DNA from: Ecdyonurus torrentis
Taxonomy: Eukaryota > Arthropoda > Insecta > Ephemeroptera > Heptageniidae
DNA: 64,000 nt
NCBI GenBank assembly: GCA_949318235.1
Contig: OX439137.1
Span: forward strand, 18,086,687-18,150,686
Reading direction: 5' to 3'
In this document: one piece after another, positions 3,882 to 54,519 of the stretch
How positions within the stretch are numbered: position 1 is the stretch's first letter
How the letters are laid out: every line of letters starts with the position of its first letter
Program-made: the position numbers and the translations under genes
Notes under the pieces: model-generated
Seen by the model: the letters and a program-made list of their open reading frames with translations, nothing else
Told to the model about the DNA's origin: nothing
Databases searched by the model: none

Positions 3882-4188
3882 TAGGGTGGTTTCATTCATG
3901 TTAAAGTCAACGCCATAAGCGAGTGCTTAATAACATGGGACGGTATAGGGAAATTACACATTTTGCCAGATTAAAAATACTCAGCAATTTTTTGAGGGAA
4001 TTAATAATAAATAATAATAAAGTTGAATTAGGTTTTCAAGTATGCAAGAAAAATAATAATAACTAAAAATTAGCTTATTTTCCAAATAAAATAGCCAAAA
4101 ACTAAGTTCCTATGCTGAGCAATGTTATTCATTGCTCATGAAGAGCATCGAAAAGCACTCAGAATGACGTCATGCGTACACACTCTAT
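3882..4188 (+). mobile_element. Family A MITE, variant with TAGGGTGGTTTC start
   Basis: A subfamily whose left end is TAGGGTGGTTTCATTC and right end TGCGTACACACTCTA. It keeps CCTATGCTGAGCAATGTTAT and the GAATGACGTCATGCG block. Four copies of this variant occur (here, 4587, 13804 and 21446). Confidence 0.8.
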
Positions 4189-4511
4189 ACGTTTTTTATG
4201 ACATAGTAATTTTTAAAGAATTATTTAAACCAATAACCTCCCCATTGTATTTTTTTCTCTTTCCATTTTAACATTCACAAAATCAGTTATAACGACTTCC
4301 TTTATTTGTCCTATATTTTTCTATTATTTATATTTTAATTTTATTTTGTAAATAAATAATAATATATTATTAATATTTTAAGTTATTATATTTCAGTATA
4401 AAAATAGAACCTCGATAGTAAAATCATATAATTTTCTACCTTAGTAACACAAATAAAATGAAGGCTACGTTTTGATTTGTATTATTATAATAATTACACT
4501 TAAATATTGCT

Positions 4512-4558
4512 AGTGTAGTGTGTATGCGCATGACGTCATATTTAAAGGAAGCTTCCAG
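4512..4558 (-). repeat. Family A end fragment
   Basis: Only the GTGTATGCGCATGACGTCAT end remains. Confidence 0.55.
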
Positions 4559-4586
4559 ACCATATAACATATGCCTTTTTAATTTA

Positions 4587-4892
4587 TAGGGTGGTTTCAT
4601 TCATGTTAAAGTCTACGTCATAAGTGAGTACTAAATAACATTGGACAGTATAGGAAAATTGTACATTTTGCCAGTTTAAAAATACTTCGCAATATTTTTG
4701 AGAGCATTAATGCTGTTAACAGGTTAAATTAGTATCTCAAGTAGGCAAGAAAAATAAGAATGACCAAAAAATAGGTAATTTTGCAAAGAAAATAGACAAA
4801 AACTACATTTGTCCTATGCTGAGCAATGTTATTCATTGCTCAAGAAGAGCATCGAAAAGCATTCAGAATGACGTCATGCGTACACACCCTAT
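4587..4892 (+). mobile_element. Family A MITE, same variant
   Basis: Complete copy from TAGGGTGGTTTC to ACACACCCTA, closely similar to 3882-4188. Confidence 0.85.
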
Positions 4893-34498: not shown

Positions 34499-36079
34499 TC
34501 ATACGGCGGACAAAACTAAATCATTCTCCATTCTCTTTATCCTCTCTATGGTTATATTAGGTAAGGGCATTCTTTGCCACCCCTTACTAGGGGTATCCTG
34601 CATCCCTTTGACCGACCTACTGACACTGATTATGCTATGCCTCTGCATCATTCTCAGTTGTCGAACTACCTGCATTTTACGTTTCTTAATCATCTTAATC
34701 ACCGTGGATTTAGGTAATATTCTCGGGAAATAACAGTGGCCCCTCCAACATAGGTACAATAAGCTCAGAGCACTAATTAATAAAGGTCCTAGAGGCATTA
34801 AGATTGGTATTAATGGATCTTGCATTTCCCTACCATCTATTGGTATCGTTCTATTTAAAAACTTACTATATAAGCAAGGGAATTCCATACCAATTTCTCC
34901 ATATTTTTCAAAGAATTCTGTGCAGTTTATTTCATACCCACACCCTGGGGCATTTACATATAACCTAACTGGGTATTTAGTAATGTTAACTATTTGTATA
35001 TTGTCAGTTTGACCCTTTTCTTGGGTTAAACTATTTTCAATCATGATCAAATTAACGGAATTAGTATCTTCTGTTGTGTAATTACTATTTGAATTTTCAT
35101 ATATATTTAATAAAGAATCAGTAGTTTGATCGATGTTTAATGATTCTGATACATCGATATTTAATGATTCCGATTCATCCGAATTGATTGTTGATATTAA
35201 TGATTCTATACTATTTTCAGATTCTTTTAATTCTGTAGTTGCAAATATCGACATTGAAGAATTCGATTCAGTACTTTGTGATGATATCGATATTGATGAA
35301 TTCGATTGTGATAACATTGATTCCGATATATTTAAATCGATATTTTCAGTATATATCGATACAGTTGGATTTTTATCCATTATTTTAGAAGACATCAAAG
35401 ATTGGAAATTATTGATTTTTTCAGTTGAGATAATCGATTCTGATTTATCAGTAGATATCGATTGTTTACTACTATTATCAAGAAATATCGATTCTGTTGG
35501 ATTAATTGTAAAATTCAATCCATCAGTTTCATTAGTAATATTTAAATTTTTACTTCTGCTAAATGTAGCTAATTGTGATGAAATTTCACGTATTTTACGT
35601 ACAATAGGTACACTACCATTTAACCTACCTAATTTTTGACCTATTTTATTTCTAGTATTAAATTTTCGACTAGAATTTACTTTACGTAAATCATTTTGAA
35701 CTTCTAATGTTAAATTTTTTTGTATTGCTAATTCTGTTAAATTTTTTTGATTAAAATCTGAAATATTTGCATTTCCTAATACATTAACATGTATATGGAC
35801 ACAGGAATATAAGATAGGAGGATCTGCACATAGATTCTTACAAGAACTCCAATTTTCACATATAGTCGCACCTTTGGTTTGGAACCCCATTACTGTAGTA
35901 CAAATATAAGGTTCGAATCTACCAAAAATATCAACAGTAGCAGGATCAGTGATTGCTAATATAAATAACATGGATATGCTAAAACTCACTGCACAAACTA
36001 TGGATAATATTTTAGCTATGAGATCTGCCGTCCAGCCTACTTCAATCTCAATAGAATCCGAGCGATTTTGTCTTCCCAT
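34499..36079 (-). CDS. TipE/TEH-family sodium channel auxiliary subunit
   Basis: Single-exon gene of 526 codons. TipE-family proteins are two-pass membrane glycoproteins that associate with arthropod voltage-gated sodium channels and alter their surface expression and gating. Visible here are a short cytoplasmic N terminus, TM1 at about 19-43, and an extracellular loop opening with the family's cysteine pattern (C60, C74, WSSC at 80, C84, C93). A second conserved block holds PGCGYEINC (C380, C386), then IGMEFPCLYSKF (C402). TM2 is at about 422-445, followed by a basic cytoplasmic tail. Residues about 105-350 of the loop form a low-complexity stretch rich in Ser, Asn, Ile and Glu, with many N-glycosylation sequons and repeated SES/NIDxSES motifs. 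The ATG at 36079 has a good context (CATCCATGG). The 168-codon ORF on the other strand is a shadow of the low-complexity region. Which TEH paralogue it is cannot be told from sequence alone. Confidence 0.9.
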   Translation of the reverse strand: MGRQNRSDSIEIEVGWTADLIAKILSIVCAVSFSISMLFILAITDPATVDIFGRFEPYICTTVMGFQTKGATICENWSSCKNLCADPPILYSCVHIHVNVLGNANISDFNQKNLTELAIQKNLTLEVQNDLRKVNSSRKFNTRNKIGQKLGRLNGSVPIVRKIREISSQLATFSRSKNLNITNETDGLNFTINPTESIFLDNSSKQSISTDKSESIISTEKINNFQSLMSSKIMDKNPTVSIYTENIDLNISESMLSQSNSSISISSQSTESNSSMSIFATTELKESENSIESLISTINSDESESLNIDVSESLNIDQTTDSLLNIYENSNSNYTTEDTNSVNLIMIENSLTQEKGQTDNIQIVNITKYPVRLYVNAPGCGYEINCTEFFEKYGEIGMEFPCLYSKFLNRTIPIDGREMQDPLIPILMPLGPLLISALSLLYLCWRGHCYFPRILPKSTVIKMIKKRKMQVVRQLRMMQRHSIISVSRSVKGMQDTPSKGWQRMPLPNITIERIKRMENDLVLSAV

Positions 36080-36462
36080 GGATGCATTTTTATCTCAAAG
36101 TAGAAAATTTTAAGATTATGTAACTAAGCTTTCTTTACTTGCATATCTTAACCTTTTTATCCCACCAGTTTTATTTTTAAATGAAATTAAAGTGTGTTTT
36201 TTTATTAATATTTTTCCGTGCTCCTTTTTTTTTTTTTTTTTTTTTTACTTTTATTTTATTTAAATGTTTATATTGAATTTTATAATTATTTAATATTCAC
36301 TTTTCAATTGATTTATATTTATTTATTTTTTTATTATTCAATAACTTCTGTTGAAGACGCTTTTTGGTCCACTGGTTACTGCTATAGCTTTTTTACTATT
36401 TTTATTTACACAAATTTACGTTTTTTCCCTTAATTTTTTTAAGTAACGTATTTTTTTCCACG

Positions 36463-48379: not shown

Positions 48380-48633
48380 TGTTCGTAAACCCTGTTTTCT
48401 GCTATTAAAAATTAAATTCTAATAGTTTATTTTTAATCTTCTACAGTTGAAAGCAGCAAAATAATTAGATCAACTTTGGTTATTCAAATATGTAATGTGC
48501 ATATTTTTAGTAAACAACATTACAACGTTACGTTTCTTGAACTTTAAACCATGAAAAAATGATGGTCTAAATGGAATTGCATTTTTTTTTTTTTTTTTTT
48601 TTTTTTTTGAAACAAGGGAACATGGTTTATGAG
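48380..48633 (+). mobile_element. Enlarged family I foldback disrupted at its right end
   Basis: CTGTTCGTAAACCCTGTTTTC at the left; the right end GGGAACATGGTTTATGAG is followed by the first hAT-type element, and the remnant TTTATGAGCATTATCAG lies beyond it. Confidence 0.65.
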
Positions 48634-49486
48634 TAGAGAGCGGAAAAATAGTCTTTAGACTATTGTCAATATTGAGACTATTGGGTTTTTTACTAAAAAT
48701 GTCCACGAATCACACGATTTCAAGCCTATGTACAAAATTAAAAAAAGACTATTTAGCGACTATTTTAGTCTCCGAGACTTTCCAGACTTTTCAAACTATT
48801 TTGCCTTTTTTCGATGTTTTTCGCTATTTCTGACAAAAATTAACTTAGAACGTGACAGACTTGAACCGGAAATTGCTAAAAGTGAACTATATTTTCACAG
48901 TAATTTTTTTTACATTATTTATTTCCAACATGTTTTGTTGGAATACTATAATTTTCAAATAAAATCGAGTAATTTTAATTTTTTTTGTTTTGTTTTGTTT
49001 TGTTCCAAAAAAAGTTTTAATTTAATAAAAATTTTAATTTTAAAAAGTTTCTTATTTGACTACAATTTGCCACTCAAATTTGAATTTACACACTAATGCT
49101 GTTCGTAAACCCTGTTCTCTTGCACCAAAAAATGCGCACTCCATTTGAATAACCAAAGACGATCGTCATTTTAGGAGCAGAGAACAGGGTTTACGAACAG
49201 CATTATTTACATGTTATCTTTAAAGTGGAATAACTTATATATTTCATCGTGTTTCACGTGTTTGACATAATTAAATTTTTAGGTACCAAATCTTCTTTAT
49301 TTTGTGTTTATAATTCGCCCTAAAAAAAAAAAAATCATGTTTTTAGTGGTCTCTGATTTTTTTTTTTTTTTTTTTTTTTTAAGACTATTTTCCGACTATT
49401 TTAATACTTTTAAAGACTATTTTTAGACTATTTTTCAATTTTGAAGACTATTTTGATGAAAAAAGAGACTATTTTTCTGCTCTCTA
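48634..49486. mobile_element. Family J hAT-type non-autonomous element 1
   Basis: Inverted ends TAGAGAGCGGAAAAATAG and CTATTTTTCTGCTCTCTA. An exact 8-base target duplication TTTATGAG lies on both sides (48626-48633 and 49487-49494). 8-base duplications and ends of this kind define the hAT superfamily. The interior is AT-rich with repeated GACTATTTT words and no transposase frame. A family I foldback is inserted at 49098-49202. Confidence 0.85.
49098..49202. mobile_element. Complete 105-bp family I foldback
   Basis: TGCTGTTCGTAAACCCTGTT at the left and AACAGGGTTTACGAACAGCA at the right are perfect inverted repeats; the loop region has GACGATCGTCATTTTAGG. The cleanest copy in the window. Confidence 0.9.
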
Positions 49487-49921
49487 TTTATGAGCATTAT
49501 CAGTAGAGAGTGCAGAAATAGTTTTTCAACTATTTGCGTTTTGAGTGCTATTTTAATTATTTAACTAGATCTCCATCGATCCATTAAATTGTGACCTTTT
49601 GACCCCATCTTAAAATCACCTATTTTCAACTATTTCATGAAAAACAACTATTTCAACATTTTTCACCTTCAACATTTAAGTAACTAGCTTAATCACGATA
49701 CAGGCGGCCGGCAGGCGCATTACTCTCGCGAACTTTCTGGAGTTGGGGAACTTTAGGAAGTGAGGGAGGGCACATGTGGCTTGCTGGCAGCCAGTCTTGC
49801 ATCCCTCGCTTAGTGCACAATATTATATTACAGTGTGAGGATGAGAGGTTTTAAATAGCAAGCCGGGTTTGCGCGCGCGATTGTTCAACCAATCAGCGCG
49901 AGCAGCTGCGGGGGCATCGCG

Positions 49922-49964
49922 TATAAAAACGCGGCTGCCACTTGCTTCCTCAGCTCAGTCAGTT
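49922..49964 (+). promoter_or_regulatory. TATA box with initiator-like sequence
   Basis: TATAAAAA at 49922 is followed, about 33 bases on, by TCAGTCAGTT (49955-49964), a match to the arthropod initiator TCAGT. Spacing is that of a core promoter, so transcription would start near 49957 and run into the hammerhead motif. Confidence 0.5.
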
Positions 49965-50012
49965 AGCAGATGTGGTGTGAGCCATCTCTAGCTGTACAGA
50001 GCTCTCTGCCGA

Positions 50013-50057
50013 GCCTTACTGATGAGTCCTAGGTAAAGGACGAAACCGGTCTAAGGC
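50013..50057 (+). ncRNA. Hammerhead ribozyme, type I
   Basis: All core elements are in order. Stem I strand GCCTTA (50013-50018), then CTGATGA (50019-50025). Stem II GTCC/GGAC (50026-50029, 50038-50041) has an 8-base loop. Then GAAA, and stem III ACCGGT (50045-50050). The predicted cleavage is after GTC at 50051. Stem I returns as TAAGGC (50052-50057), a perfect complement of GCCTTA. CTCT upstream can extend stem I with AGAG downstream across an internal loop, as in tertiary-stabilised natural hammerheads. Stem III is a self-complementary 6-mer with no loop, which in known short-stem-III hammerheads favours cleavage as a dimer. It lies within hAT-type element 2, on the strand opposite to FLAD1. 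Confidence 0.85.
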
Positions 50058-50731
50058 CAAGAGTAAGTCTGATGCTGTTTTATAATGTTGTGCCTTTGAT
50101 GTAATGTGAGAACGTGAGATGTTAGGTATATCGTATTTTACATTGACACTATACCCCTCATCCCTTTTAACGTCTATTTTTATATAGCGCAAGCTTGAAT
50201 AATTTGCATCCCTAGTCCCAATTTACTATTTAAATTAGAGAATTTTCGCGTTTTATTAATTTTCAATTCAACGTGCTCTAATCTCTACCAACTATTTTCT
50301 AATTATTTTTTTAAACGTAATTAATACCAACCGCGATGGTTTTTTCCTATATATTATATTTTTCACCTATTTGTCAACTATTTTCATATTTTTTCATGAT
50401 TTGTTGAAAACGTGTACATTTCTAAGGAAATTTGAAAAAAAAGTTAAAGAAATTTTTTTTTGAAAGAAACAAACCTTTTTTTTTTTTAATTTCCTTAGAA
50501 ATATACACGTTTCCAACAAATCATGAAAAAAATATGAAAATAGGTGATAAATAGGTGAAAAATGTTGAAATTGTTGTTTTTCATGAAAATATAATAAAAT
50601 AAAAATCAACTATTAAATCAGCTATTTTTACCACCTATTTTGCCCCAAAAAAACACCTATATAGTTCACTATTTTGGGGGAAAAAACACCTATTTCTGCA
50701 CTCTCTAATTATCAGTAATAATGTTATGTAC

Positions 50732-50873
50732 CTGAAAGTTACCGAGAGATTGAGCATAAGGATCTGTCCTTCTGTTTCCCATGAGCACAGCCTTGATATG
50801 AGGATGGTCTTGAAGTACCTGAGCCAGTCCTGACTTGATATCAGTGTTGTACTGAAGTAACTGAAGGTTGTAC
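50732..50873 (-). CDS. FLAD1: FLAD1 exon C
   Basis: Encodes 47 residues completing an Arg codon from exon B: YNLQLLQYNTDIKSGLAQVL, then the conserved block KAVLMGNRRTDPYAQSL, which in the FAD synthase domain carries the GxRRTDP motif binding the nucleotide. The acceptor is TTTCAG ending at 50874; the donor GTACAT starts at 50731. The joins to exons B and D keep frame. A hAT-type element was inserted so close to the donor that about 20 bases of original intron remain there. Confidence 0.92.
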
Positions 50874-50930
50874 CTGAAATCATAGAATATCAAACTTGAA
50901 TCTGCCTCATATACATCGGTTCTACTAATG

Positions 50931-51705
50931 TAATCTGACCAACAAACTAAAGTGCAGGTAAAAAAATGTAGTTTTAAGATGCAGCCATGCTTGCAAAACA
51001 AAGAGAGACAACACATCTGCAGCTTTTATTTTTTGGTTTGCAAAAATTGCATTTCATGATAAAATTTAAGAATTACACATTTTCAACTTTTATATAGATA
51101 TAGTAATAGATAATTGTAATTAAAGCACGCTATATTGAAAGCTATATTATGCGAAAATCTTTAATTAAATAGATACAAAAAAGGGGATGAAAAATTGCAA
51201 GCCCAAGGCTGCTAATGAGAGAATTTTACTGCCATGATTGAGATGTGATCAAACTACCTGATTTTACCACTTTGTCAAATTGCGGACACATGTTTCGCCC
51301 TACCTACTATATAGCATGCTTTAATTATAATTATTTACTACTTTTCTTTGATTTGCAATTTAAACCGAAATGTTTTTTTCTTCTTATATTTATATCATAT
51401 TTTGTATAGATAGGTATAATAATACCTCAGCTTTTGTAAAAATTTAGTCCTTACTTTTTTTTATTTTACTAATTATTATAACTACCTCATCATTTAATTT
51501 TTATGCATTGAAGGCTAGTGACATCACACGAAACTATACTTTTTGAATTTGACAGCTATCAAAGGTAAACTACCTGCTTGAGTGAGATGATTGTAACCTA
51601 ATAGCTAATTATACATTATATTTTGTCTAGCCTCCTCTACTCTATACCACATTCAGGGTATTGTCAATCAAAATGACAGATATATTAGTTCATTGGTCAG
51701 ACTAT
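50931..51705. mobile_element. Family N element, copy 2, with internal insertion
   Basis: TAATCTGACCAACAAACTAA to TAGTTCATTGGTCAGACTATA. It is reversed relative to copy 1 and is enlarged by about 300 bases (51085-51400) that resemble 47620-47660 and 48215-48260. Confidence 0.7.
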
Positions 51706-51746
51706 AGCTGCTTCATTGTAAAAGATAATAAAATCTACTTTTAACA

Positions 51747-51903
51747 TGTTAAAAACAAGAACCATATGTTCACCAATCCAAGTAGTGACCACAGTGACTG
51801 TTGCTTGACTTTAGTTACCTTTGTGTAGCCTGTGCTATGAACTGCTCTACCTCCTGGAAAGGCTCAGTACTCCTGATATACAAGGCAGGTAACTTAGACT
51901 TGA
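51747..51903 (-). pseudogene. Tandem duplicate of the 3' part of FLAD1 exon B
   Basis: 157 bases repeat the adjacent 51904-52060. The part 51819-51903 copies the last 85 bases of exon B, including its GTAACT donor, with one difference (GCTCTACC for GTTCTACC), and the rest copies the following intron. No acceptor precedes the copy, so it should be intronic and silent. Confidence 0.85.
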
Positions 51904-51975
51904 TGTTAAAAACAAGAACCATATGTTCACCAATCCAAGTATTGAACTTGGTGGGTGTTGCTCAACTTTAGTTAC

Positions 51976-52175
51976 CTTTGTGTAGCCTGTGCTATGAACT
52001 GTTCTACCTCCTGGAAAGGCTCAGTACTCCTGATATACAAGGCAGGTAACTTAGACTTGATGTTCCTGGACTTGTAGTACAGATGTGTCAAGTGAAGCAA
52101 TGCGGTGCAATCTTTACCTCCGTTGAAACTGATGGCCACCTGATCTGGATATTTGTTCATGCACTCTTCTAGCAC
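51976..52175 (-). CDS. FLAD1: FLAD1 exon B with the ATP-binding SFNGGKDCT motif
   Basis: Encodes 66 residues plus two bases: VLEECMNKYPDQVAISFNGG, then KDCTALLHLTHLYYKSRN, LYIRSTEPFQEVEQF and the end IAQATQR. SFNGGKDCTALLHL is the hallmark ATP-pyrophosphatase loop of the FAD synthase domain, which adenylates FMN to FAD. The acceptor is TTTTAG ending at 52176; the donor GTAACT starts at 51975. Exon A ends in phase 0 and this exon starts in phase 0, giving HGFQ followed by VLEEC. A partial tandem copy lies immediately downstream. Confidence 0.93.
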
Positions 52176-53570: not shown

Positions 53571-53612
53571 GAATTTATATTAAGCCTTTAAATTATGAAA
53601 TTTCAAACTTAC

Positions 53613-54474
53613 TTGAAACCCATGACGTAGATGAGGCTCACACGCTAAATTCTTCACTTGTAGAAGTGCCATTTCCACCACATCTTCTTCACCCATATCT
53701 ACTATATTATCATTATTAATATTTAATCTTAGAAACTGCATAACATCAGCTAAAACTTGACTATCTGTAGTTTCTACGGTAATTTTTGTTGAATATTTAC
53801 TAACATCCAGTACTGGATATGAACCAATAGTTACGCTACCAGCAAACTTTTTCAGAGCTAAATTTAACGTAGGTACAATTGGAACTTCATCTAAATTTAA
53901 ATATAGGACGTCGCAACATCTGGACCCCAGTAACGAGGGAAAAATATGTTGTAATCCTGATAAACTAGCTTTAAAACATTCAGGAATACCAGGAAAAATA
54001 TAAATATTTTGATATTGTACTATAGGAAACGTATAAGGAGACCAAGATTCAAATTTAACTTGTTTTTTGGTGCCAACATATAATAGTTTACTATTTTTAG
54101 GTATCCATGCCATTTTCATTGCAGGATTTTCATTGATTTCTTTGGATCCTGGATAAAATACACTAATTATTTCCCCTAATTCAACGCTAAATTCTAGTGG
54201 TATATTAAATGCTTTAGCTATGCCGTCGTAGGTGATGTCATCGTGGGTAGGTCCCACCCCACCACTAGTTATAACGAAGGTATATTGCGATGACAAATCT
54301 CGTATTTCACGAGAAATCTCAGTGATATCGTCACCTATTACGAGAATTTTACATACTTTGACGCCTAACGAGAAAAACAATTTGCTGGCGTAAGAGGAAT
54401 TTGTATCAACGGTTTGTCCTTTTAGAATTTCATCCCCTATCACTAGAATTGCAGCAGTGGGCACCATGACTCTT
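53613..54474 (-). CDS. FLAD1: FLAD1 exon A, MoCF-type (FAD hydrolase) domain
   Basis: Large exon giving about 285 residues from the ATG at 54467. It holds the molybdopterin-binding-like N-terminal domain of eukaryotic FAD synthase: AAILVIGDEILKGQTVDTNS, then TSGGVGPTHDDITYDGIAKAF, then YIFPGIPECF. In FLAD1 proteins this domain has FAD-hydrolysing activity, while FMN adenylation is in the C-terminal domain. The acceptor is TTTTCAG ending at 54475 and the donor GTAAGT starts at 53612. The ATG follows the acceptor by 7 bases (AAGAGTCATGG, good context), so an upstream exon probably supplies only leader sequence, or a short N-terminal extension if an unseen exon corrects the frame. Exons A to D together give about 440 residues, with the C-terminal 40 to 60 missing. 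Confidence 0.93.
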
Positions 54475-54519
54475 CTGAAAAGAAAGAGAAAAAAATCATT
54501 AGTAAATAACATGGAAAAT

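What the first reader, a model, noticed from the sequence alone, without database searches (positions are those of the whole stretch)
50013..50057. Complete type I hammerhead ribozyme inside a hAT-type element
CTGATGA, a perfect GTCC/GGAC stem II, GAAA, ACCGGT and a GTC cleavage site, closed by the perfect stem GCCTTA/TAAGGC, occur in the right order and spacing within 45 bases. Hammerheads are known from retroelements such as Penelope-like elements and retrozymes, and from some satellite DNAs. One inside a TIR-bounded, TSD-flanked DNA transposon would be unusual. Either a retroelement fragment was captured by the hAT element, or this transposon family carries ribozymes.
Basis: partly seen in the sequence, partly recalled or inferred. 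Interest (0 to 1): 0.88.

Follow-up and report, generated by a model that had tools for sequence, protein, structure and literature searches.

The report
Self-cutting retroelement nested in DNA transposon
The self-cutting RNA motif is real, but it belongs to an abundant Penelope-like retroelement of this probable insect genome that landed inside a small DNA transposon, and the way its copies are built hints that it spreads through multimeric or circular RNA.

Summary
The hammerhead motif at 50013-50057 is real: Rfam Hammerhead_1, 30.0 bits, all 45 model positions, just under the curated cut-off of 34. It is not part of the hAT-like element. It lies in a separate insert, 49669-50357, flanked by an 11-bp target duplication. 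Removing the insert restores the fold-back palindrome of the host transposon.

The insert is one copy of a dispersed family: 1,174 hammerhead matches genome-wide at up to 2 mismatches, 0 for the reversed control. The unit is a ~645/685-bp terminal repeat plus a 219-bp body; same-strand hammerheads lie 886-904 bp apart (12 of 12). It shows the published Penelope-like (PLE) signature: head-to-head arms, a ~35-bp "tail" on exactly one arm (27 of 27 pairs), 11-19-bp duplications, and promoter-like stretch plus minimal hammerhead in the pseudo-LTR. No RT/endonuclease ORF was seen, so these copies look non-autonomous.

Units and arms of one insertion often share private variants or are identical, while insertions differ by about 1%. 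This suggests one multimeric or circular RNA template per insertion. Ribozymes in PLEs are known; a large ORF-less, retrozyme-like version is a variant. Cleavage, circles and the RT source are untested.

The parts
49504..50707 (.). Host hAT-like non-autonomous (fold-back) DNA transposon; 18-bp perfect TIRs TAGAGAGTGCAGAAATAG
   Evidence: TIRs 49504-49521 / 50690-50707; internal palindrome
49496..49503 (.). 8-bp TSD of the hAT-like element, left (ATTATCAG)
   Evidence: sequence
50708..50715 (.). 8-bp TSD of the hAT-like element, right (ATTATCAG)
   Evidence: sequence
49658..49668 (.). 11-bp TSD of the nested retroelement, left (ATTTTTCACCT)
   Evidence: L001
50358..50368 (.). 11-bp TSD of the nested retroelement, right
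   Evidence: L001
49669..50357 (+). Nested Penelope-like retroelement copy, 5'-truncated to one pseudo-LTR with tail
   Evidence: copies elsewhere share 49680 to ~50325/50364; excision restores the host palindrome
49669..49679 (+). Probable remnant of the 3' end of the 219-bp body (TCAACATTTAA; family copies read TCAATATATTAAACGAT)
   Evidence: assignment is inference
49922..49963 (+). Promoter-like stretch: TATAAAA 49922-49928 and initiator-like TCAGTCAGT 49955-49963 (motif meanings recalled)
   Evidence: sequence; run 49935-50057 unchanged in a ~91% subfamily copy
50013..50057 (+). Minimal type I hammerhead ribozyme; predicted cut between 50051 and 50052
   Evidence: Rfam RF00163; dimer fold; conservation
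50208..50301 (+). Second conserved block (94 nt unchanged between the window copy and one subfamily B copy) near the 3' end; candidate RT recognition or priming region (inference)
   Evidence: hardly slower than flanks across all copies pooled
50325..50357 (+). Optional ~35-bp tail, present on exactly one arm of every head-to-head pair seen

Best explanation
The hammerhead belongs to a non-autonomous Penelope-like retroelement (PLE) family, one 5'-truncated copy of which inserted into a hAT-like fold-back transposon. Shown: nested insertion, family boundaries, tandem 0.89-0.90-kb units, head-to-head arms with exactly one tail, TSDs, conserved promoter-like stretch plus ribozyme. Inferred: the pseudo-LTR promoter makes RNA that starts shortly upstream of the ribozyme. 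Neighbouring hammerheads in a multimeric RNA pair through the palindromic ACCGGU helix III and cut the RNA into ~0.9-kb units that may be religated into circles. A trans-acting PLE-type reverse transcriptase primes at both strands of a staggered AT-rich target break, starting at two sites ~35 nt apart on the RNA (with or without tail), and reads the multimeric or circular template, sometimes more than once, giving head-to-head arms of near-identical tandem units flanked by an 11-19-bp TSD.
For: Nested insert and restored palindrome. Unit boundaries. 1,174 hammerheads. Same-strand spacing 886-904 bp in 12 of 12 neighbours among the 100 places listed of 1,174. One tailed and one untailed arm in 21 of 21 pairs (three near-identical C23 copies counted apart and one small old remnant included) and 27 of 27 pairs (C23 once). 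Non-low-complexity TSD >=11 bp at 23 of 44 insertions against 3 of 880 random control placements, simple repeats not removed from the control. Unchanged run 49935-50057 ending exactly at the ribozyme's last base, against one ~91% copy; copy differences 0.76% in the ribozyme and 0.91% in 49902-50012 against 2.9% in 49680-49901 and 2.7% in 50058-50207. Single-template signal: tandem units median 0 and opposite arms median 0.16% different, against 1.33% (A) and 1.06% (B) between insertions; 100 of 225 non-consensus positions shared by all units of an insertion, in 24 of 32 insertions at least one, against 2.8% (A) and 6.1% (B) for units of different insertions. Published PLE features that match: pLTRs, 31-bp optional tail on one inverted pLTR, head-to-head inverted repeats, short TSD, TATA/Inr (passages of PMC3846280); both target strands cut and extended, HHR present (passages of PMC11167929); minimal type I HHRs lacking helix III in PLE pseudo-LTRs that may cut as dimers (passages of PMC7761336).
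Against: No RT or endonuclease ORF was seen in the fetched copies, and a PLE endonuclease partner was not found: PF01541 gave only an SLX1-like exon and a ~1496-aa ORF in which Pfam finds GIY-YIG but no RT. No RNA data, so cleavage and circles are untested. 67 of 71 arms read through the cleavage site, so linear cleaved monomers are not the usual template. Eight of 32 insertions share no private variant (for example L041 0 shared / 13 unshared, L044 0/9), L020 is 1/12 and L061 11/11. 21 of 44 insertions gave no usable TSD. PMC11167929 (passages) reports that ribozyme cleavage is not needed for insertion in vitro by the Anolis PLE and found no reads at the cut site.
Confidence: 0.85

Rival explanations
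1. Same PLE-like element, but the template is a linear tandem transcript (or the RT jumps between linear transcripts); the ribozyme plays another part, such as 5'-end processing or translation, and no circle is involved.
For: No pile-up of cDNA ends at the cut site; 67 of 71 arms read through it; PMC11167929 passages report unprocessed RNA as the main substrate for the Anolis PLE. Identical units would also arise from a young homogeneous tandem source locus.
Against: 8 of 71 arms exceed ~1.3 kb, the longest product of a two-unit transcript starting at the initiator-like site; cDNA ends show no pile-up there either; many insertions are internally homogeneous although insertions differ by about 1%.
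Confidence: 0.42
2. It is an ordinary animal (non-LTR) retrozyme mobilised by some other retrotransposon such as a LINE.
For: Type I HHR, tandem units, no ORF and TSDs longer than 4 bp fit the retrozyme description (PMC7229834 passages). A LINE-like RT ORF lies beside one copy (L048; named by eye).
Against: Units are 886-904 bp, not ~170-400 nt; no tail or head-to-head geometry is described for retrozymes in the passages read; the tail on one of two inverted repeats is a described PLE feature.
Confidence: 0.12
3. The hAT transposon family itself carries the hammerhead.
For: The motif lies between intact hAT-like TIRs and TSDs.
Against: An independent 11-bp TSD bounds the insert; excision restores the palindrome (local score 180 versus 135); in 29 other loci the repeat ends well inside the hAT ends, with unrelated flanks.
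Confidence: 0.01

Closest known systems
Penelope-like elements (Penelope/Poseidon type) with hammerheads in pseudo-LTRs (passages of PMC3846280, PMC11167929, PMC7761336; Cervera and De la Pena 2014 known only as cited there)
   Same: pLTRs with promoter-like motifs and minimal type I HHR; optional ~31-35-bp tail; inverted head-to-head pLTR; TSD; 5' truncation; AT-rich target flanks (by eye)
   Different: 219-bp body without an RT/EN ORF; tandem arms of up to three units on each side; over a thousand ribozyme copies
Animal non-LTR retrozymes (PMC7229834 passages)
   Same: Non-coding, type I HHR, tandem units, TSDs longer than 4 bp, reported from insects among others
   Different: ~0.9-kb unit versus ~170-400 nt; PLE-type tail and head-to-head geometry; circRNA not shown here
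hAT transposons / MITEs (recalled)
   Same: The host element has hAT-like 8-bp TSD and short TIRs
   Different: It does not own the ribozyme
Amphibian hammerheads, newt satellite and axolotl (PMC6155905 and PMC7229834 passages)
   Same: Very weak helix III with a palindromic tetraloop; newt ribozyme cuts best as a dimer
   Different: Amphibian satellite or retrozyme repeats; no PLE tail or head-to-head geometry in the passages read

Membership tests
Hammerhead ribozyme, type I (RF00163) | Conserved core and three helices, matched by the covariance model | tested here: inconclusive
   Full-length match, 30.0 bits, E 4e-5 in 1.1 kb, but below gathering 34; core intact by eye; cofold of two copies gives stems I, II and an intermolecular helix III
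Hammerhead ribozyme, type I (RF00163) | Self-cleavage | not testable with these tools
   No RNA data
Penelope-like element | Pseudo-LTRs in direct or tandem order | tested here: met
   pLTR-body-pLTR in many loci
Penelope-like element | Optional short 3' tail and inverted head-to-head pLTR | tested here: met
   27 of 27 pairs with exactly one tailed arm
Penelope-like element | Target-site duplication | tested here: met
   23 of 44 insertions with >=11 bp non-low-complexity TSD, control 3 of 880
Penelope-like element | Hammerhead in the pLTR | tested here: met
   43 of 54 pLTR copies identical to the window motif
Penelope-like element | ORF with PLE RT and (usually) GIY-YIG endonuclease | tested here: not met
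   Body is 219 bp or shorter apart from two interrupted copies (L002, L059); PF01541 found no PLE endonuclease in the genome. Hence 'non-autonomous PLE-like', not an autonomous PLE
Animal retrozyme | Small unit of ~170-400 nt | tested here: not met
   Spacing 886-904 bp
Animal retrozyme | Non-coding tandem units with type I HHR | tested here: met
Animal retrozyme | circRNA product | not testable with these tools
   No RNA data
hAT (for the host element) | 8-bp TSD and short TIRs | tested here: met
   ATTATCAG both sides, 18-bp TIRs
hAT (for the host element) | hAT transposase | not tested
   The element is too short to encode one; no transposase search was made

The most novel reading that the evidence does not exclude
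The hammerhead makes ~0.9-kb RNA circles, and a PLE-type reverse transcriptase copies one circle round and round from both strands of one target break, so that each insertion is a head-to-head multimer of a single circular RNA. This would join PLEs and retrozymes in one life cycle and give the PLE ribozyme a function.
Probability: 0.35. Interest if true: 0.78.

Novelty: new variant of a known kind. Interest (0 to 1): 0.47.

Why it matters
The role of hammerheads in PLEs is described as unknown, and PLEs have been proposed as likely movers of animal retrozymes (PMC7761336 passages). A family with over a thousand ribozyme copies, no ORF seen, the PLE insertion signature and often single-template multimeric arms is a natural test bed for both questions. 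It also removes a false lead: the hAT transposon does not carry a ribozyme of its own.

Tried and rejected
hAT-borne ribozyme: rejected by the nested TSD and restored palindrome and by copies elsewhere. A chance motif: rejected by the simulations and the genome-wide count. An autonomous PLE partner through PF01541: two matches, 45 of 45 candidates scored. One is an SLX1-like exon (L046, named by eye). The other is a ~1496-aa ORF; Pfam finds GIY-YIG in its C-terminal 647 aa and nothing in the 886 aa before it. Long same-strand spacings that could hide an ORF: none among the 100 listed of 1,174 places. ORFs were searched only in L031-L036 (>=150 aa), L048 (>=90 aa) and the 1.3-kb stretch that interrupts the body in L059, which has inverted ends and no ORF over 84 aa. 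The plant-miRNA-model hits fall on the AT-rich palindrome of the hAT element, all below cut-off. Paper searches in the open-access library: hammerhead ribozyme + transposon + hAT + terminal inverted (0 papers); 'non-autonomous Penelope' (0 papers); mayfly + Penelope + transposable elements + genome (1 paper, listing only); Penelope-like / hammerhead / Ephemeroptera, two of three (27 papers, 10 listed, listing only). None of the titles shown describes this family. Cervera and De la Pena 2014 (PMC4209133), Schostak 2008 (PMC2377424) and Lunse 2017 (PMC5785218) are not held. Not answered: genome searches for RF00163, PF00078, the body DNA, and the hAT DNA.

Full report
Observation. Rfam's type I model covers all 45 positions at 30.0 bits, below the curated 34, which is why the gathering-threshold scan missed it. 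A strict motif test found no hit in 60 simulated windows and fires only at this site in the real one. The 33-nt core occurs 1,174 times in the 503-Mb genome at up to 2 mismatches and the reversed control never. Helix III is minimal: A50045-U50050 around CCGG. Cofolding two copies gives stem I, stem II and an intermolecular ACCGGU helix, as expected for a dimer-type minimal hammerhead.

Setting. The window holds a TipE-domain ORF (34502-36091, minus) and an FAD-synthase-like ORF (53583-54518, minus). Among hits with an organism name the latter is closest to the mayflies Ephemera danica (53% identity) and Cloeon dipterum (47%), so the host is probably a mayfly or a near relative; four hits without an organism name score higher (49-66%). 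The motif lies between 18-bp TIRs (49504-49521, 50690-50707) with an 8-bp TSD ATTATCAG, a hAT-like layout.

Nested insertion. The host element is a fold-back: 50358-50563 is palindromic, and 49633-49668 is complementary to 50553-50588. Its left arm is interrupted. Joining 49668 to 50369 restores a continuous match to the right arm (local score 180, against 135 when uncut). The removed stretch is flanked by ATTTTTCACCT at 49658-49668 and 50358-50368. So the ribozyme arrived by a second insertion.

The family. DNA search with 49690-50210 gave 45 matches from 40 scored of 1,672 candidates. Thirty loci were returned, several covering the same insertion. With 48501-52000 as query, the ribozyme-bearing repeat in the 29 loci other than the window's own starts at 49680 (49685 in L020) and its main copies end between 50305 and 50370. 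A few loci also match 49087-49206, a repeat of the neighbouring element. Upstream of 49680 lies a 219-bp body; downstream of an internal tailed end the body starts again. The layout is pLTR-body-pLTR, often 5'-truncated, often with an inverted head-to-head arm. Among the 100 places listed of 1,174, same-strand neighbours are 886-904 bp apart in 12 of 12 cases, and 22 neighbours lie head to head within 10 kb; one of those 22 (L055) is two separate insertions. L048 has three pLTRs on each side. There are at least two subfamilies, A (33 of 44 loci) and B, about 9-12% apart.

PLE signature. Each head-to-head pair has one arm ending at 50305-50329 and the other at 50349-50364, except L051, whose untailed arm stops at 50259: 27 of 27 pairs (C23 counted once) and 21 of 21 (three near-identical C23 copies counted apart, one tiny old remnant included). 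A non-low-complexity duplication of at least 11 bp (11-19 bp) was found at 23 of 44 insertions, against 3 of 880 random placements. Of the other 21, 12 gave none, 8 only A/T-only or simple-repeat matches, and 1 only 8 bp. The rotifer paper describes pLTRs, a 31-bp optional tail on one of the inverted pLTRs, head-to-head order, TSDs and TATA/Inr motifs (PMC3846280, passages). The Anolis paper reports cutting and extension of both strands and a hammerhead (PMC11167929, passages). The review reports minimal type I hammerheads in PLE pseudo-LTRs (PMC7761336, passages).

Conservation. Against one subfamily B copy of ~91% identity (C10:2688732), the longest unchanged runs are 49935-50057 (123 nt, ending on the ribozyme's last base) and 50208-50301 (94 nt). 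Over all copies in L001-L045, old fragments included, differences from the window run at 0.76% in the ribozyme and 0.91% in 49902-50012, against 2.9% in 49680-49901 and 2.7% in 50058-50207; 50208-50301 is 2.4% here, so the second block is hardly slower in the pool; 50302-50324 is 12.7% (a T run) and the tail 3.3%. Of 54 copies covering the ribozyme, 43 are identical, 3 carry only G-to-A in GAAA, and 8 carry other changes, one of them with the same G-to-A.

One template per insertion. Over 31 loci, tandem units in one arm differ by a median of 0 (37 comparisons, maximum 4.8%) and opposite arms by 0.16% (70, maximum 4.6%), while units from different insertions differ by 1.33% (A, 336 sampled) and 1.06% (B, 158 sampled). 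L048, L049, L051, L052, L053 and L056 show no substitution in any comparison (a few indels). These counts include an older copy beside L038 and treat L055, which holds two insertions, as one. With that mended, over 32 insertions with at least two units, 100 of 225 non-consensus positions are shared by all units of the insertion, and 24 of 32 insertions have at least one; for random units of different insertions the share is 2.8% (A) and 6.1% (B). Against this, 8 of 32 share none (L041 0 to 13, L044 0 to 9), L020 is 1 to 12 and L061 is 11 to 11. Segments under 100 bp or 86% identity were dropped. Loci were not chosen at random: the first 30 are best matches, follow one search's list, and favoured places with several ribozymes.

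Template. 67 of 71 arms read through the cleavage site and 13 cross more than one. cDNA ends are spread over the unit with no visible pile-up at the initiator-like site or the cut (those at exactly 49680 are partly alignment limits); 28 of 71 arms exceed one unit and 8 exceed 1.5 kb (lengths summed from alignment pieces). This argues against linear cleaved monomers as the usual template. It fits either uncleaved tandem RNA or religated circles; I cannot separate these without RNA data.

RT source. No RT or endonuclease ORF was seen: bodies in the fetched copies are 219 bp or 5'-truncated, apart from L002 (about 250 bp of other sequence inside) and L059 (1.3 kb with inverted ends, no ORF over 84 aa). 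ORFs were listed only for L031-L036 and L048. The GIY-YIG profile found only an SLX1-like exon and an unrelated long ORF without RT. PLE endonucleases may score too weakly for this test, and most of the 1,174 copies were not seen in context, so the partner remains unknown.

Verdict. A real, conserved hammerhead in a non-autonomous PLE-like retroelement nested in a hAT-like transposon. Hammerheads in PLEs are known. The ORF-less, retrozyme-like, multimeric form with the one-tail rule is the part that deserves follow-up.

Noticed in passing
48634-49486: A second hAT-like element with TAGAGAG ends and 8-bp TSD TTTATGAG (48626-48633 / 49487-49494) sits directly beside the host element.
   Followed up: partly
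50063-50068: A strong splice-donor-like GTAAGT lies just after the ribozyme and is kept in subfamily B; a 5'-UTR intron in the pLTR is possible (Penelope has one, recalled).
   Followed up: no
L048, about 4090-4850 (C1): A TIR-bearing element rich in CCATGG motifs lies at the centre of a six-pLTR head-to-head array.
   Followed up: no
L059:1983-3304 (C1): The body of one copy is interrupted by a 1.3-kb stretch with inverted GC-rich ends.
   Followed up: partly
L047/L062 (C10:48229941-48234431): A single ~1496-aa ORF with a C-terminal GIY-YIG domain and an OTU-like stretch (by eye), unlike a PLE.
   Followed up: partly
G000 contig C23: 5894, 62739, 169008: Three near-identical copies of one head-to-head insertion on a 238-kb contig, suggesting a large repeated segment.
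   Followed up: no
51746-52064: Two-copy tandem repeat with a 157-bp unit (93% matches).
   Followed up: no
290-349: tRNA-like match lacking part of the D arm, 34.7 bits; possibly a SINE head.
   Followed up: no
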